A stretch of 42,133 bases of DNA, taken from an uncultured Flavobacteriales bacterium. GTDB lineage: Bacteria > Bacteroidota > Bacteroidia > Flavobacteriales > Flavobacteriaceae. The notes under the pieces were generated by a model, which did no database searches, was not told the origin of the DNA, and worked only from the letters and a program-made list of their open reading frames with translations. The first letter of the stretch is position 1. The number at the start of each line of letters is the position of its first letter. The position numbers and the translations under genes are program-made. The stretch lies in the NCBI GenBank assembly GCA_913031385.1, contig CAJWCT010000003.1:1-42133 (forward strand), written 5' to 3'. Shown in pieces: positions 2,074 to 14,372 of the stretch.

Positions 2074-3153
2074 TTAAAATAAATTATCTAATTTCTTTTT
2101 ATTAATTGATTGATTTGCAATTAATGCTAAATCTTCTATCCACAAATTTAGATTTTTAAACCTCATGTCTTTTGTTAAACCCTTGTTATATCTGAAATAG
2201 ATTTGTTGTATAATTACAGCGATTTTAAACAAACCATATACGTAATAAAAAATTAAATTATTAATATTAATTTTTGATTTTAATGCATATTGATTAACAA
2301 ACTGGTCTCTTGTAGGGTTCCCCTCAACCGATGACGGATTAAGATTTAGTTTTTTCATAAAATCTGGATCATTATGGTTTATCCAATAACCAAGTGAAGT
2401 TCCTAAATCCATTAAAGGATCTCCGATAGTAGACATCTCCCAGTCTAGAACTGAAATTATTTCACTTATATTCTTAGAATTTAAAACAATATTATCATAT
2501 TTATAATCATTGTGTATTAATGAGGCTGAACTCTCTTTAGGAATATTATTCAATAACCATTTTGCAGTTTTTTTTAAATTAGCACATTCATCTACTATAG
2601 AATTATTATATCTTTTTATCCAGCCATTAATTTGTCTTAAATTATATCCATCTATTTTTCCAATTTCATTTAATTTTGATTTATGTATATCAATTGAGTG
2701 AAGCTCAACAAAATTATTAATAAAATTATTGGCTATTTTACCCATATTATTTTTATCTAGTTTATTGATTGTTTTAGAGTTTCCCCTGATGATAACCCCA
2801 TTGATTTTTTCCATTAAGTAGAATGGAGCCCCAATAACTTTTGCATCTTCACAATAGCATATAGCTTTTGGAACTTTATTAAAAAAAGGATAGAGTTTTG
2901 ATAAGATATTAAACTCTCTAAACATATCGTGCCCTGTTTTTATTTTAGCACCATGAGGAGGTCTTCTTAACACATATTCATCTTTGCCAATTTTAATCAA
3001 ATAGGTAAGGTTAGAAAAACCACTCGGAAATTGAAAGATTTCAATATCACTTTTTATCGATAATATTTTAGTTAAGTATTCTTGTAAATTTGAAGAATTT
3101 ATTTCTTCTCCTTGTCTAATTTTAGTGGCTTTATCAATATAGTTTTCGTACAT
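2074..3153 (-). CDS. APH-fold phosphotransferase, LvaA / ACAD10-11 kinase-domain type
   Basis: Small-molecule kinase of the aminoglycoside-phosphotransferase fold. The catalytic loop is H214-N-D216 with N221, and the metal-binding motif is D237-W-E. The N-terminal lobe has a Gly-rich FPSGFSNLTYLI strand-turn (42-53) and VLRRPP at 61-66. This is the subfamily found fused to an acyl-CoA dehydrogenase in mammalian ACAD10/11 and beside one in bacterial levulinate (lva) operons, where the kinase phosphorylates the 4-hydroxyl of a 4-hydroxyacyl-CoA. It is not expected to be an antibiotic-resistance enzyme. It is the last gene of the eight-gene minus-strand operon, starting 2 nt after the stop of the ACAD10/11-like gene. 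Kinase fold: confident. 4-hydroxyacyl-CoA as substrate: inferred from family and neighbour. Confidence 0.88.
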   Translation of the reverse strand: MYENYIDKATKIRQGEEINSSNLQEYLTKILSIKSDIEIFQFPSGFSNLTYLIKIGKDEYVLRRPPHGAKIKTGHDMFREFNILSKLYPFFNKVPKAICYCEDAKVIGAPFYLMEKINGVIIRGNSKTINKLDKNNMGKIANNFINNFVELHSIDIHKSKLNEIGKIDGYNLRQINGWIKRYNNSIVDECANLKKTAKWLLNNIPKESSASLIHNDYKYDNIVLNSKNISEIISVLDWEMSTIGDPLMDLGTSLGYWINHNDPDFMKKLNLNPSSVEGNPTRDQFVNQYALKSKININNLIFYYVYGLFKIAVIIQQIYFRYNKGLTKDMRFKNLNLWIEDLALIANQSINKKKLDNLF

Positions 3154-3155
3154 AG

Positions 3156-4337
3156 TTAGACATCTCTATATTTTTTTAGGATTTGTCTGGCAACTCTACT
3201 TTTATGAACTTCATCTGCACCATCATATATTCTTGCTGCTCTCTCGTGCCTATAGTATGAAGCAAGTATAGTATCATCAGTTACTCCAAGAGCTCCATGG
3301 ACCTGAATAGCATAGTCTACAACCTTTTGTAGAACATTAGCACAATAGAACTTAATTATTGAAATTTCATTTCTAGTTTTATAAACTCCTTGTGCATCAA
3401 TTTTATGTGCAGCGTCCTTAATCATTAACCTTGCAGCATTAATCTCTGCTCTACATTCAGCAATCCAATTTTGAATTGTTTGTTTGTCTGCAAGTAATTG
3501 GCCATGTGCTAATTCTCTACTGGCAGCTCTTTTACACATCAAATCAAATGAACGTTCACACATGCCTATCCAACGCATACAATGGTGTATTCTTCCTGGG
3601 CCTAGTCTCTTTTGTGCTATTGAAAATCCTTCTCCATCTCCACCTAGCACATTTGAAAGTGGAACTTTAACATTTTCAAATTTAATTTCAGCATGGCTTT
3701 CCCAACCTCCACCAGGGTGTCCCATTACAGATATATTTCTGATAAATTTAACTCCTTCAGAATCTGTAGGAACAATTATTTGACTTGCTTTTTTGTATGG
3801 ATTTTCATTATTAGGATCTGAAATTAACATTACTATAGCAAATTTTGCTCCATCAAAACTAGAGGTAAACCACTTGTGTCCATTTATTATATAATTGTCA
3901 TTTTCTTTAGTTGCAATAGTCCCCATATTTACAGGATTTGATCCTGCAAAATTAGGCTCTGTCATAGCAAAACAACTCCTTATTTTACCATCTAGAAGTG
4001 GATTTAAATATTTTTCTTTTTGTTCTTCAGTACCAAACTCTATTAATATTTCCATATTTCCTGCATCTGGAGCTTGACAATTAAAGACATAAAAACCATA
4101 TGGACTAGCGCCTAAAATTTCGCTAACCTCCCCATGTTGTTCAAGAGTTAACCCTAGTCCGCCATATTCTTTTGGGATTTGAGGAAGCCAAAGCCCCATC
4201 TTTTTAACTTTTCCTCTTAGTTCATTTAGTTTTGGTAATTTTTCTTCCCAACTTGAATCCAAGATCCAGGGTTCTAAAGAAAACAATTCCTTTTCAACAA
4301 ATTCTTTTATAGTATTCTTTATTTCTTTAAAATCCAT
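3156..4337 (-). CDS. Acyl-CoA dehydrogenase, ACAD10/11 (LvaC-like) subfamily
   Basis: A 393-aa flavoprotein with the ACAD layout: N-terminal helices, a central beta domain (CFAMTEPNFAGSNP, then KWFTS) and a C-terminal four-helix bundle. Near the C-terminus it reads RIYDGADEVHKS, so Asp (about D372) sits where MCAD-type enzymes carry the catalytic Glu of IYEG. As I recall, this Asp-containing motif is characteristic of the ACAD10/11 group. LvaC and ACAD11 convert 4-phosphoacyl-CoA to enoyl-CoA rather than simply dehydrogenating a saturated thioester. The kinase gene follows 2 nt downstream and the MaoC hydratase gene ends 9 nt upstream. The family assignment is strong; the dephosphorylating reaction is inferred. 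Confidence 0.9.
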   Translation of the reverse strand: MDFKEIKNTIKEFVEKELFSLEPWILDSSWEEKLPKLNELRGKVKKMGLWLPQIPKEYGGLGLTLEQHGEVSEILGASPYGFYVFNCQAPDAGNMEILIEFGTEEQKEKYLNPLLDGKIRSCFAMTEPNFAGSNPVNMGTIATKENDNYIINGHKWFTSSFDGAKFAIVMLISDPNNENPYKKASQIIVPTDSEGVKFIRNISVMGHPGGGWESHAEIKFENVKVPLSNVLGGDGEGFSIAQKRLGPGRIHHCMRWIGMCERSFDLMCKRAASRELAHGQLLADKQTIQNWIAECRAEINAARLMIKDAAHKIDAQGVYKTRNEISIIKFYCANVLQKVVDYAIQVHGALGVTDDTILASYYRHERAARIYDGADEVHKSRVARQILKKYRDV

Positions 4338-4346
4338 ATTTAATTT

Positions 4347-4835
4347 TTATTTATAAGCTATAGAAATAAACTCAGCCACACATGCTGGTTTTTCTTGATC
4401 TTTTAATTCATAAATGATCTTTAATTTATACTTAATTCCACCTTTTATATCTTCACATGAAATTACTGAAATTCTAGCTCTAATTGGAGAATTAACCCTT
4501 GTAGCATTCATAAATCTAACTTTATCGCAGCCATAATTGATTGCCATGCTTACATTATTAAGTTTAAGAGTCTCATAACAAAACTTAGGGGCAAGTGATA
4601 ATACTAAGAATCCATGAGCTACAGGCTTTTTGTATGGAGAATGTTTTTCACATAGTTCAGGGTTAATATGAATCCATTGATTATCATCAGTAATTCTTGC
4701 AAAAGTGTTTATTTGATCTTGCGTTATTGTAGTCCATTCTGAAAGTCCAACTTCTTTGCCAACATAATTTTTTAGATCAGATAATTCATCAATCTCTGTA
4801 GAATAAGCTTTATTTATAATATTTTGTTCTGACAT
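4347..4835 (-). CDS. MaoC-like (R)-specific enoyl-CoA hydratase
   Basis: A 162-aa single hot-dog domain. The hydratase-2 signature lies at about residues 43-60, TFARITDDNQWIHINPE, with D51 and H56 as the probable catalytic pair, followed by the typical AHGFLVLSL segment. It should hydrate a trans-2-enoyl-CoA to the (R)-3-hydroxyacyl-CoA in the cytoplasm. The gene sits between an SDR gene (13 nt upstream) and the ACAD10/11-like gene (9 nt downstream). Its product could be oxidised by one of the two SDRs and its substrate supplied by either ACAD. MaoC proteins of this length also occur in polyester and branched-chain metabolism, so the chain specificity is open. Confidence 0.88.
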   Translation of the reverse strand: MSEQNIINKAYSTEIDELSDLKNYVGKEVGLSEWTTITQDQINTFARITDDNQWIHINPELCEKHSPYKKPVAHGFLVLSLAPKFCYETLKLNNVSMAINYGCDKVRFMNATRVNSPIRARISVISCEDIKGGIKYKLKIIYELKDQEKPACVAEFISIAYK

Positions 4836-4848
4836 TTTATTCTTTTTA

Positions 4849-5622
4849 TTATGCTGAAATCATATGACCTCCATCAGCAACAAATACTGATCCTGTACAA
4901 TAATTAGATGCTTCTGATGCAAGGAAACATGCTAATCCTGCCATGTCATCTGGTTCAGCAATTTTCCTTAATGGTAAATCATTTTTTACTTTACTTAGCA
5001 CGTTTTCATTAGTCCATAGAGCCGAACTAAATTTAGTTTTTATTAATCCCGGACATATAGCATTTGATCTAATTCCATATTTCCCCCATTCTTTAGCCTG
5101 TGATTTTGTAAGCATGATTAATGCAGATTTACTAATACTATATACTCCTAAATTTTCACTCGGTTTAAGGCCCTCAACTGAGGCAATATTAATAATACTT
5201 CCACAACTATTTTTTTTCATAAAAGGAAGACACTTATTTGCTAATAGATGAGGAGCTTTCAAATTTACATTAATAACTTTATCAAATAATTCATTGTCAG
5301 TAGCTGTTAATTCACCATAAAGAGGATTAGTTGCTGCATTATTAACCAAAATATCTATTCTTCCAAAAGTTTTAGCTACTGAATTGACTAAATTAATTAT
5401 ATCTTCATCCTTTCCAACATGACATTGAATTGGTAAAATATTTTCTTGCCCTAATTCTTTTGCAACTTCTTCCAAAGAATTTTGATTTCTAGAACTTATA
5501 GCTACTTTTGCTCCAAATTCAATAAAACCTTTAGCAATAGATTTTCCTATTCCCTTACTTGCACCAGTTATTATGGCAACTTTCCCCTCTAGATTAAATT
5601 TATTTTTTATTGATTCTTTCAT
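4849..5622 (-). CDS. SDR-family oxidoreductase (DHRS4-like)
   Basis: A 257-aa classical short-chain dehydrogenase/reductase. It has TGASKGIG at 19-26 (dinucleotide-binding loop), NNAA at 94-97, and the catalytic set N120, S148, Y161 and K165 in INIAS and YSISK. SSRN at 43-46, after the second beta strand, is compatible with NADP(H). Similar SDRs often accompany ACAD10/11-type dehydrogenases. In the lva scheme an SDR (LvaD) reduces a 4-oxoacyl-CoA to the 4-hydroxyacyl-CoA; alternatively this enzyme oxidises the 3-hydroxyacyl-CoA made by MaoC. The upstream SDR gene ends 9 nt before this start, indicating co-transcription. Fold and activity class are secure; the substrate is not. Confidence 0.88.
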   Translation of the reverse strand: MKESIKNKFNLEGKVAIITGASKGIGKSIAKGFIEFGAKVAISSRNQNSLEEVAKELGQENILPIQCHVGKDEDIINLVNSVAKTFGRIDILVNNAATNPLYGELTATDNELFDKVINVNLKAPHLLANKCLPFMKKNSCGSIINIASVEGLKPSENLGVYSISKSALIMLTKSQAKEWGKYGIRSNAICPGLIKTKFSSALWTNENVLSKVKNDLPLRKIAEPDDMAGLACFLASEASNYCTGSVFVADGGHMISA

Positions 5623-5631
5623 ATACTAATA

Positions 5632-6375
5632 CTACATTGTCATTGCTCCTCCATTTGCATGCAATACAATACCGCTAACAAAACTAGCTTCTTTTGAAGC
5701 AAGGAACAGATATACATGACCCATATCTTCAGGAGTACCAATTCTGCCAACAGGAATCATTGCAATACCTGCTTTAACAATTTCTGGAGGTATTGAAGCA
5801 GTCATTTCAGATTTAATAAAACCAGGAGCTACTGCATTAACTGTTATATTGTATCTTCCTGTTTCTTTACAAAGAGCTCTTGTGAATCCAGCAATTGCAG
5901 CTTTAGAAGCAGCATAATTAGTTTGTCCAAATGCTCCCTGAAAAGCATTAATTGATGATGCATTTATAATTCTTCCATATTTCGCTTCTTTCATATGAGG
6001 CAATACTGTTCTTGTAGTTATGTATAAAGAATTAATATTTACATCAATTACTCTATCCCATTCATCCCTTGACATTTTTAAAAATGATCTATCTCTTATA
6101 ATTCCAGCATTATTGATTAGAATATCAATTTTTCCGTATTCTCTGATTAATTCTTCAACGGCCTTATCTACCGATGATTGATCTGATACATTTACCTTTT
6201 GAAAAATTATTTCTCCCCCTTCATCTTTTATTCTATCAGCAGTATTTTGACCCTCATCCATAATGTCCCATAAAGCTACCATAGCTCCTTCATTACAGAA
6301 TACTTTACATATTCCCTCTCCAATTCCTCTGGCTCCACCAGTTATAATAGCCACTTGACCATTTAATTTACCCAT
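5632..6375 (-). CDS. SDR-family reductase, FabG/PhaB-like
   Basis: A 247-aa SDR close to 3-oxoacyl-ACP/acetoacetyl-CoA reductases. It has TGGARGIG at 13-20, NNAG at 88-91, N113, the Ser pair in INASS at 140-141, Y154 and K158 in YAASK. The acidic residue in ALWDIMDE at the end of the second strand could favour NAD(H), in line with a catabolic hydroxyacyl-CoA dehydrogenase. It lies between an ACAD gene (25 nt upstream) and the second SDR gene. The two SDRs are clearly different, so they probably act at different carbons, one on the 3-hydroxy and one on a 4-oxo/4-hydroxy position. That division of labour is inference. Confidence 0.88.
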   Translation of the reverse strand: MGKLNGQVAIITGGARGIGEGICKVFCNEGAMVALWDIMDEGQNTADRIKDEGGEIIFQKVNVSDQSSVDKAVEELIREYGKIDILINNAGIIRDRSFLKMSRDEWDRVIDVNINSLYITTRTVLPHMKEAKYGRIINASSINAFQGAFGQTNYAASKAAIAGFTRALCKETGRYNITVNAVAPGFIKSEMTASIPPEIVKAGIAMIPVGRIGTPEDMGHVYLFLASKEASFVSGIVLHANGGAMTM

Positions 6376-6400
6376 AATTAAAAATTTATATTAATACTTA

Positions 6401-7570
6401 TTATATTCTACTTGTTTCTGCTTCATAATCCTTGCCGTCAATAACAATTTTGGCAATTATATCTCTCATAATTTCAGAAGTTCCACCTCCAATTGTTCCA
6501 ACTCTACAATCTCTATACATTCTTGCCATTGGATAATCTTCAGTATATCCATTTCCACCAAAAAATTGTAAACATTGAGTAGAGACTTTTTCATGTAATT
6601 CTGTGCAAAGTAATTTGCCCATAGAACAGAGTTTTACATCATATATGTTTTTGTCAAATAGATTACAGCAATAATAGCTAAATACTTTTAATGCTTCTAT
6701 TTCAGATGATAATTGCGCAATTCTATGTCTTAATACTTGGAGTTTATTAATACTTTTCCCAAATGCTTTTCTTTCATTCATGTAACTTAATGATTCAGAA
6801 ATTGCAAATTCCATTGTAGCAATGCTACTAGGCATGAAACAAAGTCTTTCTAATTGTAAGCCATTCATTAGATAGTAGAATCCTTTTCCTTCTTCACCTA
6901 CAAGATTTTCTGATGGAACAACTACATTGTCAAAGCTAAGTTCTGCTGTATCAGATGAACGCCACCCAAGTTTGTCAATTTTGGTTTTAGTTATTCCAGG
7001 CGAATCTAGATCTATAACTAATAAACTGATTCCTTTTGATCTAGCTGCTGGATCAGTTTTCACAACTGTGACTATAAAATCTCCATAGACTCCATTAGTA
7101 ATAAATGTTTTTGATCCATTGACAATGTAATTGTCTCCTTTTTTTATAGCATTTGTTTGAATATTTTGAACATCAGATCCAGTATTAGGTTCTGTAATTC
7201 CAATACAGCTTATCAAATTACCAGATATTATCCCTGGAAGATATTTGCTTTTCAGTAGATCACTTCCATATTTTAGGATATATGGTCCAGACATGTATTG
7301 TACTGCTTGTTGAGTTATTGTAAAGCCTCCTGAATTTAGTCTACCCATTTCTTCATTTAGAACTACTTCAAAGAAGAAATCTAGATTACCTCCACCATAT
7401 TTCTCTGGATATGATAGGCCAAGAAATCCCATTTTGCCCATTTTTTTCCAAATTTCTTTAGGAATTTTTCCATCCTTTTCCCATTTATTTAAATTTGGTT
7501 TAACTTCTCTTTTTAGAAAATCCCTAAGGCTTTTTCTAAACATTTCATGTTCTTCAGAAAAATAATTCAT
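6401..7570 (-). CDS. Acyl-CoA dehydrogenase, LCAD/IVD-like
   Basis: A 389-aa FAD-dependent acyl-CoA dehydrogenase with ITEPNTGSD at 125-133, SKTFITNG at 153-160 and a C-terminal IGGGTSEIMRDIIAK. The usual IYEG glutamate is replaced by Gly. As in LCAD and isovaleryl-CoA dehydrogenase, the base is probably on the other helix: E259 in the segment ISESLSYMNERKAFGK aligns with the LCAD position. It should introduce the alpha,beta double bond into a long or branched acyl-CoA, passing electrons to ETF. It differs from the ACAD10/11-like protein of the same operon. The gene follows the poly-lysine-tailed protein with a 16-nt gap. Confidence 0.9.
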   Translation of the reverse strand: MNYFSEEHEMFRKSLRDFLKREVKPNLNKWEKDGKIPKEIWKKMGKMGFLGLSYPEKYGGGNLDFFFEVVLNEEMGRLNSGGFTITQQAVQYMSGPYILKYGSDLLKSKYLPGIISGNLISCIGITEPNTGSDVQNIQTNAIKKGDNYIVNGSKTFITNGVYGDFIVTVVKTDPAARSKGISLLVIDLDSPGITKTKIDKLGWRSSDTAELSFDNVVVPSENLVGEEGKGFYYLMNGLQLERLCFMPSSIATMEFAISESLSYMNERKAFGKSINKLQVLRHRIAQLSSEIEALKVFSYYCCNLFDKNIYDVKLCSMGKLLCTELHEKVSTQCLQFFGGNGYTEDYPMARMYRDCRVGTIGGGTSEIMRDIIAKIVIDGKDYEAETSRI

Positions 7571-7586
7571 TTTTTTATTTATTTAA

Positions 7587-7916
7587 TTAGTGCCTTTTTT
7601 TCTTCTTCTTCTTCTTCTTCTTTGTAGATAATGATATAGTTCCTAAATCAGAATCTCCGTCAAAAGATAAAGTAATTGTAGTATAACGTAAATAGGAAAT
7701 TTCAATCTCACCAGACTCTCCGGTTATCTTAAGTGAAAAATTACCATCAAAGTCTGATATTGTTTCATTAGTTGTGCCTTTTTCAATAATGCTTGCACCC
7801 GGAAGAGGAGCATTTATTTTTTCATCCATAACAGTACCAGATACTACAGTTTGTGCTATAGTAGTTGTTAAAGATAAAAACATAAAAGGAGCAAGAATTT
7901 TGAATTTTATTCCCAT
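7587..7916 (-). CDS. Small exported protein: single CarboxypepD-reg-like domain with poly-lysine tail
   Basis: A 109-aa protein. Residues 1-22 form a Sec signal peptide (hydrophobic core, TTTIAQ cleavage region). Residues 24 to about 90 resemble the beta-sandwich (VSGTV, LPGASIIEKGTTN, SDFDGNFSL, YLRYTTITL) that normally forms the N-terminus of SusC-type TonB-dependent receptors. Here it stands alone and ends in nine consecutive lysines plus Arg-His, encoded by seven AAG and two AAA codons. The start overlaps the CoA-ligase gene by 10 nt, so the two are probably translationally coupled, and the first ACAD gene follows 16 nt downstream. It could be a degraded SusC remnant, but the intact signal peptide, operon position and defined tail argue for a real periplasmic or surface protein. 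Function unknown. Confidence 0.75.
   Translation of the reverse strand: MGIKFKILAPFMFLSLTTTIAQTVVSGTVMDEKINAPLPGASIIEKGTTNETISDFDGNFSLKITGESGEIEISYLRYTTITLSFDGDSDLGTISLSTKKKKKKKKKRH
7602..7622. repeat. (CTT)7 trinucleotide tract
   Basis: Seven perfect CTT units, preceded by seven T residues. Read on the minus strand these encode the lysine tail of the small exported protein. Slippage by whole units would change only the number of lysines and keep the frame. Confidence 0.9.
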
Positions 7917-9583
7917 ATCACAGCTTCACTATTTTCATGCCATTGCTTATATTTAGACATAAATTTTTCATCTATTTTAACCCTTTTAATTTTCAGTGTA
8001 GGAGTACACAGACCATTTTCGGGTGTCCATGCCTCTTTCATAATAACAATGGTTGAAACCTTTCTAAAACTTACTTGATCTTTATTTACAGATTCTAATT
8101 TATTATTAAGCTGCTGTTTTAATGTGTCTTTATCAATAGAATTAGCTCCTTCAGAAGGTACAACAAGAAGAATTGGTGCTGCTATTCCAAATCCAGCCAC
8201 ACACATCTGTTCAAATTCAGTAACATCTCCAAATAGTGCTTCAATTTTCCCAGGCTCAACAAATTCACCTGTAGTTGTTTTAAATGCGTCTTTGACTCTT
8301 CCAGTAATGTATAGATTGCCTTCATCATCAATTCTACCTCTATCTCCAGTATACAGCCATCCGTTCTTTATAGTGTTATTTGTGGTCTCTGAATCATTGT
8401 AATATCCTTTCATTACATATGGCCCTCTCATTAGTATTTCCCCAGTTTCAGAATCTATCTTAATATCAACTTTCGGTTGTGCTTTACCAACAGAACCAGG
8501 CTTGTCAGTAATTTCTCCTGGAAGTTGAGTGCATATTGCACAATTCTCAGTCATTCCATAGCCATTGGTTATCTTCACTCCAAGGCTCCTGTACCATACT
8601 CTTTGTGATTCTTGCATTGGCGCAGCTCCAGTTACAATTGCTTTTGCCTTGCTTAATCCTAATTTTTTCTTTAAAACCATTTTAAGTAAAGAAGAAACTA
8701 TAGGTATACTTAAGAGTTTATTTAACTTTTCTTGAGGGAATTTGGATAATATACCCATTTGAAATTTTGTATATATTCTTGGAACTCCAAAGAAAACGGT
8801 TGGTTGAACAGAGCCTAGATTTTGAGCAAATGTTTCTATAGATTCTGTAAAAGAAATGGTTCCTCCATATCTAAAACATGTCCATTCCACTACAATTCTT
8901 TCAGCAATATGATTTAATGGTAAATAAGAGAAGAATGAATTTTTTCCATTAAAATCTACTCTCAATGGATTGTGCTCTGGAGTTGTTAAGCATTCTGTAT
9001 TTTCATTGGTTTGATAATCTAGAACTACTCCCTTTGGCGTACCAGTTGTTCCAGAAGTAAATATGATTGTCCATACATCACTACGGTCTGGGTAAAAATC
9101 TTCTTGTTGAGGTTCAAATTTATTAATAAAATCAAACCATTGATGACCCACAGAAATTTCTGAGCAATCCTTATAGTGTGGAAATGCAATTAACGGCATA
9201 TCATCTGGAATTCCGTTTTTAATTTCATCCCATGCATTAACTTTACCCATAAAAAGGGCACTTACATCTCCAAAATGTAAGAGACTTTTTAGTTCTTTGG
9301 AATTTAATGTTGGAAAGAAAGGAACAGACACATATCCTGCCATATATATGGCTAAATCAGCAATAATCCATTCTCTACAATTTTTAGACATTAACCCAAT
9401 ATGACTTTTAGGAGGTAGTCCAAGAGTTTTTAATCCAGTAGCTAATTTTCTGGCCATTTGACCAGTTTCTCCCCAAGTATATTCTTCCCATTTATCACCA
9501 AATGGTTGCCTTAAAAAAGGTTTGTCTTTTAATTTTCTTTCCCATTCATAGAAGTTGAATTTGAATTTATTATTGCTTTCCAT
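7907..9583 (-). CDS. Long-chain-type acyl-CoA synthetase (AMP-forming)
   Basis: A 558-aa adenylate-forming ligase of the fatty-acyl-CoA synthetase group. The P-loop is IIFTSGTTGTPKG at 173-185. A GYGMTE motif lies in the middle third, followed by YTGDRGRIDDEGNLYITGRV and KDAFKTTTGEFVEP, the hinge and C-terminal region, which resembles eukaryotic-type long-chain ligases. It activates a free carboxylic acid to the acyl-CoA with ATP and CoA, the expected first step for this operon. It is the first gene of the minus-strand operon and is divergent from the carboxyltransferase operon across about 310 nt. Chain length cannot be read from the sequence; in lva operons the equivalent ligase (LvaE) activates levulinate. 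Confidence 0.9.
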   Translation of the reverse strand: MESNNKFKFNFYEWERKLKDKPFLRQPFGDKWEEYTWGETGQMARKLATGLKTLGLPPKSHIGLMSKNCREWIIADLAIYMAGYVSVPFFPTLNSKELKSLLHFGDVSALFMGKVNAWDEIKNGIPDDMPLIAFPHYKDCSEISVGHQWFDFINKFEPQQEDFYPDRSDVWTIIFTSGTTGTPKGVVLDYQTNENTECLTTPEHNPLRVDFNGKNSFFSYLPLNHIAERIVVEWTCFRYGGTISFTESIETFAQNLGSVQPTVFFGVPRIYTKFQMGILSKFPQEKLNKLLSIPIVSSLLKMVLKKKLGLSKAKAIVTGAAPMQESQRVWYRSLGVKITNGYGMTENCAICTQLPGEITDKPGSVGKAQPKVDIKIDSETGEILMRGPYVMKGYYNDSETTNNTIKNGWLYTGDRGRIDDEGNLYITGRVKDAFKTTTGEFVEPGKIEALFGDVTEFEQMCVAGFGIAAPILLVVPSEGANSIDKDTLKQQLNNKLESVNKDQVSFRKVSTIVIMKEAWTPENGLCTPTLKIKRVKIDEKFMSKYKQWHENSEAVIWE

Positions 9584-9614
9584 TATTAGTTTTTTACTGT
9601 AGTTTTTATAATTT

Positions 9615-9631
9615 AGGTGTGTTCAACACCT
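9615..9631. other. Short perfect hairpin in the CoA-ligase leader
   Basis: AGGTGT (9615-9620) and ACACCT (9626-9631) are perfect inverted copies around a 5-nt loop, with T residues following on the plus strand. It would lie in the 5' leader of the minus operon. No plus-strand gene ends here, so it is not an obvious terminator. Confidence 0.4.
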
Positions 9632-9680
9632 TTTTCTATAGAAAATGAATATAGAATGTAACTTTTTTTATTTAAAACTA

Positions 9681-9706
9681 CAAAAATATATGTATCTCGT
9701 AGTCAA
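9681..9706 (-). promoter_or_regulatory. Candidate promoter of the CoA-ligase operon
   Basis: On the minus strand TATTTTTG (9688 to 9681) matches the Bacteroidota -7 consensus TAnnTTTG. A TTG (9706 to 9704) lies 15 nt upstream, shorter than the usual 17-23. The predicted start would leave a leader of about 90 nt before the ATG at 9583. Confidence 0.35.
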
Positions 9707-9893
9707 TAAATAGATTTTCAAATTTCTACTTCTATAGATTTTTTATGTATGATTTAGAATCTCAGATTTGGCTTTGTGCCTCATTAATTCTTTAAATTCT
9801 CGACTTGAAAAGTCCAAGAATTTCATTATATTAAATAAATTACTAACAAATGAAAAATATTATAAATAATCTATTAAAATAAATTTTTATTTA

Positions 9894-11492
9894 ATGAAAG
9901 GTAAAAAGTCAAATATTGATGTTTTAAGTTCAAATTTTATTGAAAATGAGATTTCTATGAAGAAATTATTGAAAGAACTTAATTCCTATTTTAAATTGTC
10001 AAAGTTAGAAGGCAATAAAGATAAAATTAAAAGAGCTAGAAGAAGAAAGAAACTCCTTGCTAGAGAAAAAATAGACTTATTACTTGATAAAAATAAACCT
10101 CATATAGAATTGATGTCACTTGCTGGCTTAAAACATGAAAACGGATTTGGAGCAGGTGGAACTACAGTAGTTGTTTTGGGTTATGTTTCTAATGTTCTTT
10201 GTTTAATTAACGCAAATGTCGCAACAAGAAAGGCAGGTGCAATTGATTATGCTACAAGCTTAAAAAATCTAAGATTATCACAAATTGCTAATGAAAATAA
10301 ATTATTAACTATAAATCTAGTCGAAAGTGGTGGAGCTAATTTGCCAGATCAGGATAGGGTTTTTAATAATTACGGAAAGTTTTTTATGGAGATGTCTAGA
10401 AGATCTAAGGAAGGAATCCCAACAATTTCTGTAGTATTTGGTAATGCAACGGCAGGTGGCGCATATGTTCCTGGAATGTCTGATTATTCAATTCTCCAGA
10501 AGAATGCAGCTAAAGTCTTTTTGGCAGGACCACCATTAGTAAAGATGGCAACTAATGAAGATGCTAATGAAGAGGAATTAGGAGGAGCTCAAATGCATAG
10601 TAGTATTTCTGGCGTTTCAGATTTTTTAGCTAATGACGAAAAACATGCTATAGAAATAGCAAAAAATTTAATCAAAAAAATTAAGCAACCTGAGGCTAAC
10701 AACTATGAGAGCGATGCATCTTCCCCAAAATTTGATAAAAATGAGATTTTAGGGATTATTCCTTCTAACTTGAAAAAAGCTTTTGATATTAGAGAACTTG
10801 TCAAAAGATTTGTTGATAGTTCTGAATTTATTGAATTCAAAGAAAATTATGGTAGAACAATGTTTTGCTGTTGGACAAAAATTAATGGTTATCCTATTGG
10901 AATTATTGCTAATAATGGAGTAATTTTTATTGAGTCAGCAAGAAAGGCTACCCATTTTATACAATTAGCTAATAAATCTAATACTCCTTTACTATTTATT
11001 CATAATACTACAGGCTTTATGGTAGGAAAGAGATATGAACAAAATGGAATGATTAATAGTGGATCTCAATTAATTCATGCTGTTGCTGGAAGTACAGTTC
11101 CACACATTAGTCTACAGGTTGGTAATTCATATGGTGCTGGAAACTATGCAATGTGTGGTAGATCTTTTGACCCTAGGTTCCTTTTTTCATATCCAAATGT
11201 AAAATCTGGTGTCATGGGAGCAGATCAGTTGTCTGGTGTTATGGAAATTATTAAAAGAAATTCAGCATCATCATTAAATAAAGCTATTGATGAAGAAAAA
11301 CTTAAAATAGAAAAGGAAAAGTTGGCTGAACAGGCTGATAAAAAGGCAAGTGTTTGGCATACTACTTCTGAGGTCTGGGACGATGGAGTTATTGATCCAA
11401 CAGACACCAGAAAATATTTGTCTTTAGCATTAGCAGCTGTTTACAACAATGAAATAAAGGGGTCTAGTTCTTTTGGAGTATTTAGAATGTAA
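9894..11492 (+). CDS. Acyl-CoA carboxylase, carboxyltransferase (beta) subunit
   Basis: A 532-aa protein of the biotin-dependent acyl-CoA carboxyltransferase family (PccB/MccB/AtuC type). It has two crotonase-like domains: the N half carries NLVESGGANLPDQ, NATAGGAYVPGMSDY and FLAGPPLVKMAT, and the C half carries IGIIANNGVIFIESA, FIHNTTGFMVGKRYE and NSYGAGNYAMCGR. The overall pattern is nearest to methylcrotonyl- or geranyl-CoA carboxylase beta subunits. It would transfer carboxyl from carboxybiotin to an acyl-CoA. No biotin carboxylase/BCCP alpha subunit gene is in the window, so a partner must be encoded elsewhere or be shared. It is the first gene of the plus-strand half of the island; the crotonase gene follows after 9 nt. 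Confidence 0.92.
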   Translation: MKGKKSNIDVLSSNFIENEISMKKLLKELNSYFKLSKLEGNKDKIKRARRRKKLLAREKIDLLLDKNKPHIELMSLAGLKHENGFGAGGTTVVVLGYVSNVLCLINANVATRKAGAIDYATSLKNLRLSQIANENKLLTINLVESGGANLPDQDRVFNNYGKFFMEMSRRSKEGIPTISVVFGNATAGGAYVPGMSDYSILQKNAAKVFLAGPPLVKMATNEDANEEELGGAQMHSSISGVSDFLANDEKHAIEIAKNLIKKIKQPEANNYESDASSPKFDKNEILGIIPSNLKKAFDIRELVKRFVDSSEFIEFKENYGRTMFCCWTKINGYPIGIIANNGVIFIESARKATHFIQLANKSNTPLLFIHNTTGFMVGKRYEQNGMINSGSQLIHAVAGSTVPHISLQVGNSYGAGNYAMCGRSFDPRFLFSYPNVKSGVMGADQLSGVMEIIKRNSASSLNKAIDEEKLKIEKEKLAEQADKKASVWHTTSEVWDDGVIDPTDTRKYLSLALAAVYNNEIKGSSSFGVFRM

Positions 11493-11501
11493 AATTTGCT
11501 T

Positions 11502-12320
11502 ATGAATTTTTATAACAAAAAGGATGTTCAAAATATAAAATCATACAGATTTGATTTTATTGAAATAAGTGAAAACAATCACGTTTTTACAATCACTTTG
11601 AATCGCCCAGAAAAGAAAAATGCATTACATCCACAAATGACTAATGAAATAGCTTTTGCTATGCATTATGCACATTTTAATAATTCTGTTTGGATAGTTG
11701 TCTTTAAGGCAAATGGTGATACATTTTGTGCAGGTGCAGATCTTAATGCTATGATGGGGAAAGTTGATCCTCATAATTCGACAATACCAGTCCCTGAAAA
11801 AGAAATTTTAATGGGTGATCTTTTTAATGCTATAAGTAAACCTACAATAAGTGTTGTAGAAAAAAATGTTTACGCAGGCGGGTTTTTAATATTAGCTGGG
11901 TGTCTGTATGTTATTGCAGATAAAAATTTAAGATTCAGTCTGCCAGAAGTTAAAAGGGGGCTTTTCCCAATGCAGGTAATGGCTAGTCTAATTCAAGTAA
12001 TACAACCGAGAAAAGTTTTAGATTGGTGTGTTAGAGGATATAGTATTTCTTCAATGCAAGCAAAAGAATATGGCCTTGTAACACATCTTTCAACTCAGGA
12101 TAATATTGATATTGAGCTATCTAATTTAATTAAAGAAATATTAGATAATTCACCTACAGCAATTAGGCTAGGAATAGAAGCATACAATTATATTACTAAT
12201 AAACCTGATCAGCATCAATATTTATTAGAAATGTTGAATAAAGCAATAAAATCTAATGATGCTAAAGAAGGAATTAGTGCATTTAAAGAAAAAAGAAAAC
12301 CAAATTGGAAAGGCAGGTAA
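11502..12320 (+). CDS. Enoyl-CoA hydratase/isomerase (crotonase) family protein
   Basis: A 272-aa crotonase-fold protein with LNRPEKKNAL at 33-42, the first oxyanion segment FCAGAD at 75-80, AGG at 125-127, and SLPEVKRGLFP at 146-156. E149 corresponds to the second catalytic Glu of classical hydratases. The first (Glu of GGCEL) is replaced by Leu in GGFLI, and the usual PGAGG is absent. It may therefore be an isomerase, a hydratase of branched glutaconyl-CoA type, or another crotonase reaction. I prefer the ATG at 11502; a TTG six bases upstream is possible. It lies 9 nt after the carboxyltransferase stop, a pairing also seen in liu/atu clusters, where the hydratase acts on the carboxylated product. 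Confidence 0.85.
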   Translation: MNFYNKKDVQNIKSYRFDFIEISENNHVFTITLNRPEKKNALHPQMTNEIAFAMHYAHFNNSVWIVVFKANGDTFCAGADLNAMMGKVDPHNSTIPVPEKEILMGDLFNAISKPTISVVEKNVYAGGFLILAGCLYVIADKNLRFSLPEVKRGLFPMQVMASLIQVIQPRKVLDWCVRGYSISSMQAKEYGLVTHLSTQDNIDIELSNLIKEILDNSPTAIRLGIEAYNYITNKPDQHQYLLEMLNKAIKSNDAKEGISAFKEKRKPNWKGR

Positions 12321-12321
12321 T

Positions 12322-12363
12322 TATAGTTAAATTTACTATGCGTGCATAGTAAATTTAACTATA
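12322..12363. repeat. Perfect 42-nt palindrome (20-bp arms, 2-nt centre)
   Basis: Bases 12322-12341 are the exact reverse complement of 12344-12363, apart from a GT centre at 12342-12343. It starts 2 nt after the crotonase stop and ends 23 nt before the MDR ATG. No U-rich tract follows, so it does not look like a standard terminator. It could be an operator, an mRNA processing or stability stem, or a cruciform-forming site. Confidence 0.9.
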
Positions 12364-12386
12364 TTTGTTGTCTAAAAAAAATAATT

Positions 12387-13385
12387 ATGATAAATAAGCA
12401 AGTCCTTTTTACTAAAAGACCAATTGGTACACCTGATGAATCAATTTGGAAGCATGTTGAATCTAAAGTAAGAGATTTACAAGACAATGAATTCCTAATT
12501 AAAAATCACTACATATCTTTAGATCCAGCCATGAGGGGATGGATGAATGATGCACGATCATATATTGAACCTGTTCAATTAGGAGAAGTAATGAGAGCAG
12601 GTACAGTTGGTGAGGTAGTTAAATCAAACAATGAAGATTTTAAGGTTGGTCAATTTGTTTCAGGATGGGGAGGTGCTCAAGAATATTGTATAAGTTCAGG
12701 TGATAATTATAATAAAATTTATCCTGCTGATATTCCATTACCTACATTTCTTGGATATTTAGGAATGCCTGGAATGACTGCGTATTTTGGAATTTTACAG
12801 GAGGGTAAAATTAAAGAAGGTGACATAGTCTTGGTTTCAGCTGCAGCTGGGGCCGTAGGTAGTTTGGTAGGTCAAATTGCCAAAATAAAAGGATGTAGGG
12901 TTATTGGAATAGCTGGAGGAAAAGAAAAGTGTGACTTTCTTGTTGATGAATTAGGATTTGATGATGCAATAGACTACAAAAATGAAGAAATCTACACTTC
13001 ATTAAAAGAAAAATGCCCTAATGGAATTGATGTATATTTTGATAATGTTGGAGGAGAAATTTTAGATGCTGTTTTAACTAGAATTAACAAAAATGCTAGG
13101 ATAGTAATATGTGGAGCTATATCCCAGTATAACAACAAAACTAAAGTAGTGGGGCCGTCAAATTATATGTCATTATTAGTTAATAGAGCTAGTATGAAAG
13201 GTATGGTAGTTTTTGATTATAAGGATAATTATATGAAAGCTCTTACTGATATAGCAACTTGGTTTAAAGAAGGAAAGTTAAAAAATAATGACACAATTAT
13301 TGAAGGAATTGAAAACTTTCACGAGGCATTTCTTAAACTATTTTCAGGTGATAAATTAGGGAAGCTTGTATTAAAAATTGTATAA
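12387..13385 (+). CDS. NADP-dependent oxidoreductase, MDR family (prostaglandin-reductase / CurA-like)
   Basis: A 332-aa zinc-free medium-chain reductase. It opens with MINKQVLFTKRPIGTP, has ISLDPAMRGWM at 43-53, and the NADPH-binding Rossmann segment VSAAAGAVGSLVGQIAK at 150-166 followed by VIGIAGG. Relatives reduce the C=C bond of alpha,beta-unsaturated ketones, aldehydes or 15-oxo-prostaglandins. In this operon it may reduce an enone or unsaturated side chain before beta-oxidation, or detoxify reactive enals. The start is ATG at 12387. An in-frame GTG at 12342 would put the N-terminus inside the palindrome and add 15 residues not typical of the family. The next gene starts 9 nt after its stop. 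Confidence 0.9.
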   Translation: MINKQVLFTKRPIGTPDESIWKHVESKVRDLQDNEFLIKNHYISLDPAMRGWMNDARSYIEPVQLGEVMRAGTVGEVVKSNNEDFKVGQFVSGWGGAQEYCISSGDNYNKIYPADIPLPTFLGYLGMPGMTAYFGILQEGKIKEGDIVLVSAAAGAVGSLVGQIAKIKGCRVIGIAGGKEKCDFLVDELGFDDAIDYKNEEIYTSLKEKCPNGIDVYFDNVGGEILDAVLTRINKNARIVICGAISQYNNKTKVVGPSNYMSLLVNRASMKGMVVFDYKDNYMKALTDIATWFKEGKLKNNDTIIEGIENFHEAFLKLFSGDKLGKLVLKIV

Positions 13386-13394
13386 TAGTTACAA

Positions 13395-14372
13395 ATGAAA
13401 AATAAAATTTCTTTATTTGATGGTTTGTCAATACCGGTAATTGCTGCTCCATTATTTTTAATTTCTGGACCTAGACTTGTTATAGAATGTTGTAAGAATG
13501 GAATTGTAGGTACATTTCCTGCTCTTAATCAAAGAACTAGTGAAGGTTTTGAGGAGTGGCTAATTCAAATAAAATCTGAACTTGATGAATTCGAAAAGGA
13601 GACAGGGAAAAAACCTGCACCTTTTGGAGTCAATTTAATTGTTCATAATACAAATCCAAGAGTTAGGGCTGATTTGAAAATATGCATAAAACATAAGGTT
13701 CCTATAGTTATAACATCTCTAGGGGCAGTTTCAAGATTAGTTGATGCAGTCCATAGTTATGGAGGACTAGTATTTCATGATATTGTAAAAAAGAGACATG
13801 CTGAAAAAGCAACTGAAGCTGGGGTTGATGGATTAATCTTAGTTGCTGCGGGTGCTGGAGGCCATGCTGGGACAATTAATCCAATGGCATTAATTTCTGA
13901 AATAAAAAGTTTTTTTAATAAAACAGTTATCCTTTCTGGATGTATAAGTAATGGCAGGGATGTAGCTTCAGCATTGCAAATGGGAGCAGATTTAGCATAT
14001 ATGGGAACTAGATTTATTAATACAAAAGAAAGTAGAGCCCCAGAGGATTATAAACAAATGATTATAGATTCTAGTGCAACTGATATTGTATATACAGCTG
14101 CAGTTTCTGGTGTCCCTGCTAGTTTTTTAAGACCTAGCCTAGAATCTATGGGAATAACTGAAGAAATGTGGGGAAGAAAAGCTAAAATGGATTTTGGAAA
14201 GGAACTTGATGCTGCACAAGCTGAAGCAAAAGCATGGAGCACCATTTGGTCTGCAGGTCAAGGAGTTACAAGTATTTCTGATGATCTTCCTGTTCAAGAA
14301 TTAGTTGATAAAATTACCAATGAATTTAAGGAATCCATAAAAGAGCAATCGAAACTTTTAGACAAGTATTAA
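13395..14372 (+). CDS. Nitronate monooxygenase-like FMN enzyme (2-nitropropane dioxygenase family)
   Basis: A 325-aa TIM-barrel flavoprotein. It begins with SIPVIAAPLFLISGPRL, has AAGAGGHAG at 151-159 with H157 at the catalytic His position, and carries the FMN-phosphate region SGCISNGRDVASALQMGADL and MGTRF at 181-206. Members oxidise nitronates. Many homologues occur in acyl-CoA catabolic clusters, including steroid side-chain and ring degradation, where the real reaction appears to be oxidation or reduction of a CoA ester. The operon context favours such a role over nitroalkane detoxification. It is the last gene of the plus operon and overlaps the convergent DASS transporter gene by 4 nt. 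Confidence 0.88.
   Translation: MKNKISLFDGLSIPVIAAPLFLISGPRLVIECCKNGIVGTFPALNQRTSEGFEEWLIQIKSELDEFEKETGKKPAPFGVNLIVHNTNPRVRADLKICIKHKVPIVITSLGAVSRLVDAVHSYGGLVFHDIVKKRHAEKATEAGVDGLILVAAGAGGHAGTINPMALISEIKSFFNKTVILSGCISNGRDVASALQMGADLAYMGTRFINTKESRAPEDYKQMIIDSSATDIVYTAAVSGVPASFLRPSLESMGITEEMWGRKAKMDFGKELDAAQAEAKAWSTIWSAGQGVTSISDDLPVQELVDKITNEFKESIKEQSKLLDKY

What the first reader, a model, noticed from the sequence alone, without database searches (positions are those of the whole stretch)
9894..14372. Orphan acyl-CoA carboxyltransferase beta subunit with a crotonase and two redox enzymes, divergent from the kinase operon
The plus-strand half pairs an MccB/AtuC-like beta subunit with a crotonase, as in leucine (liu) and acyclic terpene (atu) degradation, but no biotin carboxylase/BCCP subunit is in the window. 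An MDR enone reductase and an NMO-like flavoenzyme follow. Together with the minus operon this is a 12-gene island for an unrecognised substrate, possibly a branched isoprenoid-like or oxidised fatty acid.
Basis: partly seen in the sequence, partly recalled or inferred. Interest (0 to 1): 0.6.

Follow-up and report, generated by a model that had tools for sequence, protein, structure and literature searches.

The report
Terpene-type carboxylase subunit without its partner
In this group of marine bacteria a subunit of an enzyme that adds CO2 to branched acids has lost the partner gene that should supply the activated CO2, yet the remaining gene is intact and conserved, so it most likely borrows the partner from the cell's fat-making machinery.

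Summary
In detail: 9894-14372 encodes an intact acyl-CoA carboxyltransferase (CT), a crotonase, an MDR enone-reductase homologue and an NMO-family flavoenzyme, divergent from an eight-ORF operon, with no biotin carboxylase (BC) or carrier. The CT is not MccB: a supported tree and a diagnostic indel put it on the geranyl-CoA carboxylase (AtuC) side. The missing alpha subunit is not an assembly gap. Relatives with CT 54-61% identical carry a ~660-aa alpha directly after the CT (9 of 9 genomes, one in the window's genus at the same locus). Genomes with CT 66-100% identical never showed a second BC (0 of 43; 36 have exactly one, AccC-sized). On the tree this is a single loss. The orphan CT stays under purifying selection, and its ORF alone seems to have moved between genera. 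The divergent operon contains an ACAD11/Lva-type 4-hydroxyacyl-CoA kinase and dehydrogenase pair by homology; this kinase occurs in 20 of 40 genomes tested, 19 with the orphan CT. Best reading: an Atu-like pathway for a branched, possibly hydroxylated acid, in which the CT takes carboxybiotin from housekeeping AccB/AccC. Partner and substrate are inferred. New variant of a known kind.

The parts
9894..11492 (+). Orphan acyl-CoA carboxyltransferase (beta) subunit of GCC/AtuC-side type, 532 aa; both glycine-rich motifs that I recall as the oxyanion holes are present (ATAGGAY from residue 185, GNSYGAGNY from 410); gate residue Tyr160
11496..12320 (+). Crotonase (likely start ATG 11502); keeps the second catalytic Glu (LPEVKRG) but has Leu at the first Glu position, which is also not Glu in the crotonases of four actinobacterial CT-alpha clusters
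12387..13385 (+). MDR-family NADPH enone/enoyl reductase homologue (CurA/LTB4-12-HD-like)
13395..14372 (+). NMO/FabK-like FMN enzyme
9584..9893 (.). 310-bp divergent intergenic region between ligase and CT
7907..9583 (-). AMP-forming acyl-CoA ligase; found beside the CT, usually divergent, in many orphan loci and in several alpha-paired ones
7587..7916 (-). 109-aa CarboxypepD_reg-like ORF ending in poly-Lys; resembles the N-terminal domain of the TonB receptor that sits near here in relatives (possible remnant)
6401..7570 (-). Acyl-CoA dehydrogenase ACAD2 (nearest solved: 2pg0, then LCAD, 3r7k and IVD)
5632..6375 (-). SDR2, short-chain dehydrogenase/reductase
4849..5622 (-). SDR1, short-chain dehydrogenase
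4347..4835 (-). MaoC-type hydratase
3156..4337 (-). ACAD1, ACAD11/LvaC-type dehydrogenase with the ACAD10/11-specific Arg/His/Arg and catalytic Asp positions (my reading of the alignment)
2074..3153 (-). APH-fold kinase, ACAD11-N-terminal/LvaA-type

Best explanation
The island is an Atu-like catabolic pathway for a beta-methyl-branched, possibly hydroxylated (terpenoid- or isoprenoid-like) carboxylic acid. SHOWN by sequence: the CT is of the GCC/AtuC-side lineage; its dedicated BC-BCCP alpha subunit was lost once, at the base of a clade of small-genome (1.1-1.9 Mb) Flavobacteriaceae; the CT stayed intact and constrained; one AccC-sized BC and one AccB are the only BC and AccB-family carrier detected in these genomes. 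INFERRED: the ligase makes the acyl-CoA, ACAD2 introduces the 2,3-double bond, the CT carboxylates the gamma-carbon using carboxybiotin on AccB charged by AccC, the crotonase hydrates the product, and an HMG-CoA-lyase-like enzyme encoded elsewhere cleaves it. The kinase-ACAD1 pair would dehydrate 4-hydroxyacyl-CoA forms of the substrate or an intermediate, and MaoC/SDR would run the remaining beta-oxidation.
For: Tree: window CT, G001 CT, four actinobacterial AtuA-linked CTs and GCC beta are separated from MCC by a 100/98 branch. The MCC three-residue insertion is absent; PMC4673880 (passages) links that insertion and Phe191/Gly162 to a small or large substrate pocket. 9 of 9 genomes with CT 54-61% identical have a second, 656-669-aa BC directly 3' of the CT (G001). 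0 of 43 genomes with CT 66-100% identical have a second BC. Orphans form one clade, 100/99, one change. TIGR00531 exceeds its cut-off once in 32 of 39 orphan genomes and never twice. CT versus ten orphan relatives: dN 0.02-0.12, dS 0.17-2.8. Ligase, ACAD, CT and crotonase match atu logic (PMC4097962 passages). An HMGL-like lyase at E<=1e-44 is in 34 of 40 genomes. ACAD11-type kinase and dehydrogenase. Precedent for one alpha serving several CTs: AccA3 (PMC5407890 passages).
Against: No physical or biochemical evidence of an AccB/AccC-CT complex. AccC/AccB of the bacterial ACC type have no BT domain (recalled), and PMC4673880 says BT-hook contacts enforce pairing so that GCC-MCC hybrids do not form. 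The orphan CT carries Lys388Asn and Lys392Gln at positions near-fixed in alpha-paired CTs, which might alter chemistry. Gate residue is Tyr, neither Gly (GCC) nor Phe (MCC). The lyase matches lie below the HMG-CoA lyase family cut-off (0 of 40 over it) and none was found in G000. AtuA was found in 0 of 40 genomes, but the control was silent too. Two alpha-paired loci (L217, L218) show no other island gene within the 20 kb fetched, and nine orphan loci have the CT alone, so the CT is not always tied to this gene set.
Confidence: 0.55

Rival explanations
1. Leucine degradation: the CT is a methylcrotonyl-CoA carboxylase beta subunit that lost its alpha.
For: Best solved-structure hit by E-value is MCC beta 3u9r (1.2e-133); IVD is among the ACAD2 relatives; bulky Tyr at the gate.
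Against: The MCC rows and the flavobacterial MCC-like CT(a) fall on the other side of a 100/98 branch; the MCC insertion is absent in all 34 orphan rows of the alignment. Linked genes (4-hydroxyacid kinase, MaoC, MDR, NMO, TonB receptor, BVMO-like enzyme in some) go beyond leucine breakdown.
Confidence: 0.2
2. The CT no longer carboxylates with biotin but has become a biotin-independent crotonase-superfamily enzyme (for example a decarboxylase or hydrolase of the same acyl-CoA).
For: Clean loss of alpha with continued strong constraint; near-fixed K388N, K392Q, Y244F, T325C and G462N coincide with the loss.
Against: Both glycine-rich motifs are retained, and 133 of 155 columns conserved in ten alpha-paired CTs are kept; a shared-carrier solution is simpler.
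Confidence: 0.12
3. A draft-genome artefact: alpha is present but lies in unassembled parts.
For: G000 is 72% complete; 6 of 38 relatives show no BC at all, not even AccC.
Against: In all nine alpha-paired relatives the alpha is the next gene after the CT; here crotonase follows within 9 bp. 0 of 43 orphan genomes have a second BC, including two at 90% and 93% completeness (G644, G009).
Confidence: 0.03

Closest known systems
Geranyl-CoA carboxylase AtuC/AtuF and the Atu (acyclic terpene utilization) pathway of Pseudomonas
   Same: CT on the same side of the tree as GCC beta, no MCC insertion; ligase, ACAD, CT and crotonase set
   Different: No alpha subunit; gate Tyr instead of Gly; no AtuA found (control silent); ACAD11-type kinase module, NMO and MDR added; substrate unknown
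Actinobacterial CT-alpha clusters with AtuA, crotonase and ACAD on plasmids (Dietzia, Rhodococcus, Tsukamurella; L136-L139)
   Same: Nearest relatives of the CT seen outside Bacteroidota (44-49% identity; only the plasmid collection was searched); their crotonases also lack the first catalytic Glu
   Different: They carry a dedicated alpha directly 3' of the CT and an AtuA gene
Methylcrotonyl-CoA carboxylase LiuB/LiuD (MccB/MccA)
   Same: Same protein family and full-length alignment, best solved-structure hit
   Different: Separate clade, 3-residue insertion and Phe gate in MCC, dedicated alpha in MCC
ACAD10/ACAD11 and LvaA-LvaC 4-hydroxyacid catabolism
   Same: Minus operon encodes kinase and ACAD homologues with the ACAD10/11-specific residues
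   Different: Encoded beside a carboxylase-type gene set; not compared with the lva operon itself here
Mycobacterial AccA3 serving AccD4, AccD5 and AccD6
   Same: Precedent for one BC/BCCP subunit serving several CTs (PMC5407890)
   Different: AccA3 is a fused alpha; here the only candidates are separate AccC and AccB

Membership tests
Geranyl-CoA carboxylase beta (AtuC) | Clades with GCC beta and not with MCC beta | tested here: met
   100/98 branch, 38-row tree; GCC row itself is a long branch joined to another long branch, L140
Geranyl-CoA carboxylase beta (AtuC) | No three-residue MCC insertion before the gate residue | tested here: met
   Alignment; criterion from PMC4673880
Geranyl-CoA carboxylase beta (AtuC) | Gly at gate position 162 | tested here: not met
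   Tyr160 in the window
Geranyl-CoA carboxylase beta (AtuC) | Dedicated alpha subunit (AtuF: BC-BT-BCCP) | tested here: not met
   0 of 43 orphan-type genomes
Geranyl-CoA carboxylase beta (AtuC) | Carboxylates geranyl-CoA | not testable with these tools
   needs enzyme assay
Methylcrotonyl-CoA carboxylase beta (MccB/LiuB) | Clades with MCC beta | tested here: not met
Methylcrotonyl-CoA carboxylase beta (MccB/LiuB) | Three-residue insertion with Phe gate | tested here: not met
Biotin-dependent acyl-CoA carboxyltransferase (PF01039) | CT domain with both glycine-rich (oxyanion-hole) motifs | tested here: met
   motif role recalled
ACAD10/11-LvaA/LvaC 4-hydroxyacyl-CoA module (minus operon) | APH-type kinase plus ACAD with catalytic Asp and Arg/His/Arg set | tested here: met
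   against residues named in PMC12440821; numbering matched by my reading, one-residue offset
ACAD10/11-LvaA/LvaC 4-hydroxyacyl-CoA module (minus operon) | Phosphorylates 4-hydroxyacyl-CoA | not testable with these tools
   needs enzyme assay
Atu pathway | HMG-CoA-lyase-type enzyme (LiuE role) | tested here: inconclusive
   34 of 40 genomes have a homologue at E<=1e-44, none over the family cut-off, none found in G000
Atu pathway | AtuA | tested here: inconclusive
   0 of 40, but the control found none either

The most novel reading that the evidence does not exclude
After losing its alpha subunit, a whole clade of marine flavobacterial GCC-type carboxyltransferases acquired a biotin-independent acyl-CoA activity, marked by loss of two conserved lysines (K388N, K392Q), and the single gene now spreads between genera as a one-gene functional upgrade.
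Probability: 0.12. Interest if true: 0.8.

Novelty: new variant of a known kind. Interest (0 to 1): 0.58.

Why it matters
MCC and GCC are described as alpha6-beta6 machines whose alpha-beta contacts prevent hybrids (PMC4673880). A clade that discarded alpha once and kept beta under selection is a natural experiment on how a carboxyltransferase can be rewired, perhaps to the housekeeping acetyl-CoA carboxylase parts, and the nine alpha-paired sister genomes give matched controls. It also marks a recurring catabolic island for branched, perhaps hydroxylated acids in small-genome marine flavobacteria whose substrates are unknown, and warns against annotating these CTs as leucine-pathway MccB.

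Tried and rejected
MccB (leucine) membership was rejected on tree and indel. Assembly gap as the cause of the missing alpha was rejected on 43 genomes and gene adjacency.

Extreme constraint as the cause of CT identity across genera was rejected: synonymous divergence of the CT is heterogeneous. L063 is closer to L032 in the CT (94% aa, 24% fourfold difference) than to its own group member L041 (87%, 58%), while crotonase, MDR and ligase show the reverse in amino-acid identity (54, 62, 60% against 79, 89, 80%). I take the 'AG-' isolate names of these records for single-cell genomes from memory; two of the three titles say MAG, so chimeric assembly is less likely but not wholly excluded.

Sharing with the common flavobacterial MCC-like CT(a) was considered. 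CT(a) too can lack a dedicated alpha: 7 of the 23 genomes whose CT(a) I aligned have a single BC. It lies on the MCC side, so the window CT is a separate case.

AtuA search was uninformative (control silent). No structure prediction was run. Co-expression could not be tested. The search for biotin carriers rests on TIGR00531 only. In one search, two of twelve CT pairs (L052, L054) had saturated dS and are left out of the dN/dS range (their dN is 0.25).
Full report
WHAT IS THERE. The four plus-strand genes are intact: CT 9894-11492, crotonase to 12320, MDR 12387-13385, NMO 13395-14372. The CT stop and the crotonase start are 3-9 bp apart. The minus operon has eight ORFs, 2074-9583. No BC domain was found in the own genome, a 72%-complete draft of 1.21 Mb, so relatives had to decide whether the absence is real.

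WHICH CARBOXYLTRANSFERASE. By E-value the nearest solved chains are MCC beta (3u9r), human MCC beta, 9tps, then GCC beta (5ikl). A 38-row tree separates MCC beta, human MCC, AccD1, a Sinorhizobium MCC and the common flavobacterial CT(a) from the window clade, G001, four actinobacterial plasmid CTs, L140 and GCC beta with 100/98 support. GCC beta and L140 are long branches that join each other, so their exact place is unsure. An independent character agrees: the MCC-side rows have a three-residue insertion just before the residue that gates the substrate pocket, and the GCC-side rows lack it. PMC4673880 (passages and sections 6-7 read) reports that this insertion and Phe191 shrink the MCC pocket, whereas GCC has Gly162. 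The window has Tyr160 there, so the loop is GCC-like in length but with a bulky gate. Substrate size is therefore open.

THE LOST ALPHA SUBUNIT. A scan of named genome contigs gave 38 loci with a CT 68-96% identical. In their genomes, BC domains number one in 32, none in 6 and two in none. TIGR00531 exceeds its cut-off once in 32 of 39 orphan genomes (these 38 and G000) and never twice; further hits are weak. A survey of 397 genomes of the family found 19 with a CT at E<=1e-135. Of the 16 then checked for BC, the 9 with CT 54-61% identical all have a second BC of 656-669 aa on the same contig just after the CT, and the 7 with CT 66-90% identical have only one, AccC-sized (446-455 aa). Adding the non-overlapping genomes, orphan-type genomes with a second BC are 0 of 43 (36 with one BC, 7 with none). 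G001, in the window's own genus, has CT-alpha-crotonase-MDR-NMO beside the same ligase; its alpha has BC and biotinyl domains, the SSMKM biotin motif, and a Trp that I take for the hook Trp of PMC4673880. A 28-row tree puts all 15 orphan rows in one clade (100/99; one change). This is one loss with the CT retained. CT dN is 0.02-0.12 against dS 0.17-2.8 in ten window-orphan comparisons (two more saturated), so it is constrained.

WHAT CHANGED IN THE CT. Of 155 columns conserved in at least nine of ten alpha-paired CTs, the orphans keep 133. Near-fixed changes between 13 paired and 15 orphan rows are Y244F, T325C, K388N, K392Q and G462N. Their role is unknown.

A GENE THAT MOVES ALONE. Between five members of the window's group and 18 of the other-genus group, closest fourfold-site differences are 16% for the CT but 37-52% for crotonase, MDR, ligase, NMO, SDR2 and MaoC. 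DNA identity to L034, L035, L037 and L063 in 100-bp bins is 83-99% across the CT ORF, 72-81% in the first 200 bp of the crotonase and about 53-68% after that; the upstream intergenic stretch is 28-57%. L032 against L063 and L041 shows the same pattern; these bear names that I recall as single-cell genomes. Transfer or gene conversion of the CT alone is the inference.

THE ISLAND. The ligase lies beside the CT in many orphan loci and in four of eight alpha-paired 20-kb loci (L213-L216; not in L211, L212, L217, L218); it is also there in G001. In L215 and L216 the order is ACAD1, ECH2, MaoC, SDR1, SDR2, SDR, TonB receptor, ligase, then divergent CT-alpha-crotonase. Orphans of other genera have NMO, TonB receptor, hydrolase, ligase, sometimes BVMO-like enzyme and MFS transporter, then CT, crotonase, MDR, thiolase, SDR2, MaoC, ECH2 and two ACADs. 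In a third group the CT stands alone (nine loci, L052-L060). The kinase occurs in 20 of 40 genomes: 3 of 6 genus-type, 17 of 20 of the second group, 0 of 5 L048-type, 0 of 9 stand-alone. In G096 the kinase and the CT lie about 11 kb apart.

THE KINASE HALF. The kinase matches the APH entry 9o56 (E 5.5e-83) and ACAD11; ACAD1 matches ACAD11 and, by my reading of the alignment, keeps the Arg, His, Arg and catalytic Asp positions that PMC12440821 (passages) names as specific to ACAD10/11 and LvaC. This is a 4-hydroxyacyl-CoA dehydration module by homology.

THE CROTONASE. It keeps the second catalytic Glu but has Leu at the first. The crotonases in four actinobacterial CT-alpha clusters also lack the first Glu. 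From memory, LiuC/AtuE-type hydratases share this; that was not tested, and the gamma-carboxygeranoyl-CoA hydratase model is only a mid-list hit, 111.7 bits against a cut-off of 426.

MECHANISM. Atu logic (PMC4097962, passages) is ligase, ACAD, carboxylase, hydratase, lyase. All but the alpha are in the window or, for a lyase homologue, in 34 of 40 genomes (below the family cut-off, and not found in G000). The carboxyl donor is most simply AccB charged by AccC. This is inference: PMC4673880 argues that BT-hook contacts normally enforce pairing, and AccC lacks a BT domain (recalled).

NOVELTY. Searches for geranyl-CoA carboxylase with Flavobacter (one paper, PMC9561691, listing only, on desthiobiotin), acyclic terpene utilization with marine and Bacteroidetes (one review), orphan carboxyltransferase terms (three papers, listing only) and MCC subunit absence in Bacteroidetes (PMC3199775) gave no listing that describes this. 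Passages of PMC3199775 list acyl-CoA carboxylases in Bacteroidetes and, where I looked, do not mention it. Only open-licence papers are in that library.

Noticed in passing
L008-L030 (other Flavobacteriales), 4.6-kb loci: The common flavobacterial MCC-like CT (CT(a)) has no alpha beside it in the loci listed, and 7 of the 23 genomes have only one biotin carboxylase: a second, separate kind of orphan carboxyltransferase on the MCC side.
   Followed up: partly
window 9894-11492 against L034, L035, L037, L063: The CT ORF alone is near-identical between genera while flanking genes are not: apparent gene-precise exchange.
   Followed up: yes
window 7587-7916: A 109-aa CarboxypepD_reg ORF with a poly-lysine tail lies beside the ligase, near where relatives have a TonB receptor, and resembles its N-terminal domain (E 6e-6); possibly a decayed receptor.
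   Followed up: partly
L040 6188-7669 and homologues in L038, L043, L045: A flavin-binding (Baeyer-Villiger-like) monooxygenase and an alpha/beta hydrolase lie beside the ligase in some relatives, hinting at a cyclic ketone or lactone feeding the pathway.
   Followed up: no
L195 (G001:C4) and L194 (G062:C181): In congeners the kinase-ACAD1 pair near metG is accompanied by a second crotonase (ECH2), and in G001 also by two more ACADs, which the window lacks at this place.
   Followed up: partly
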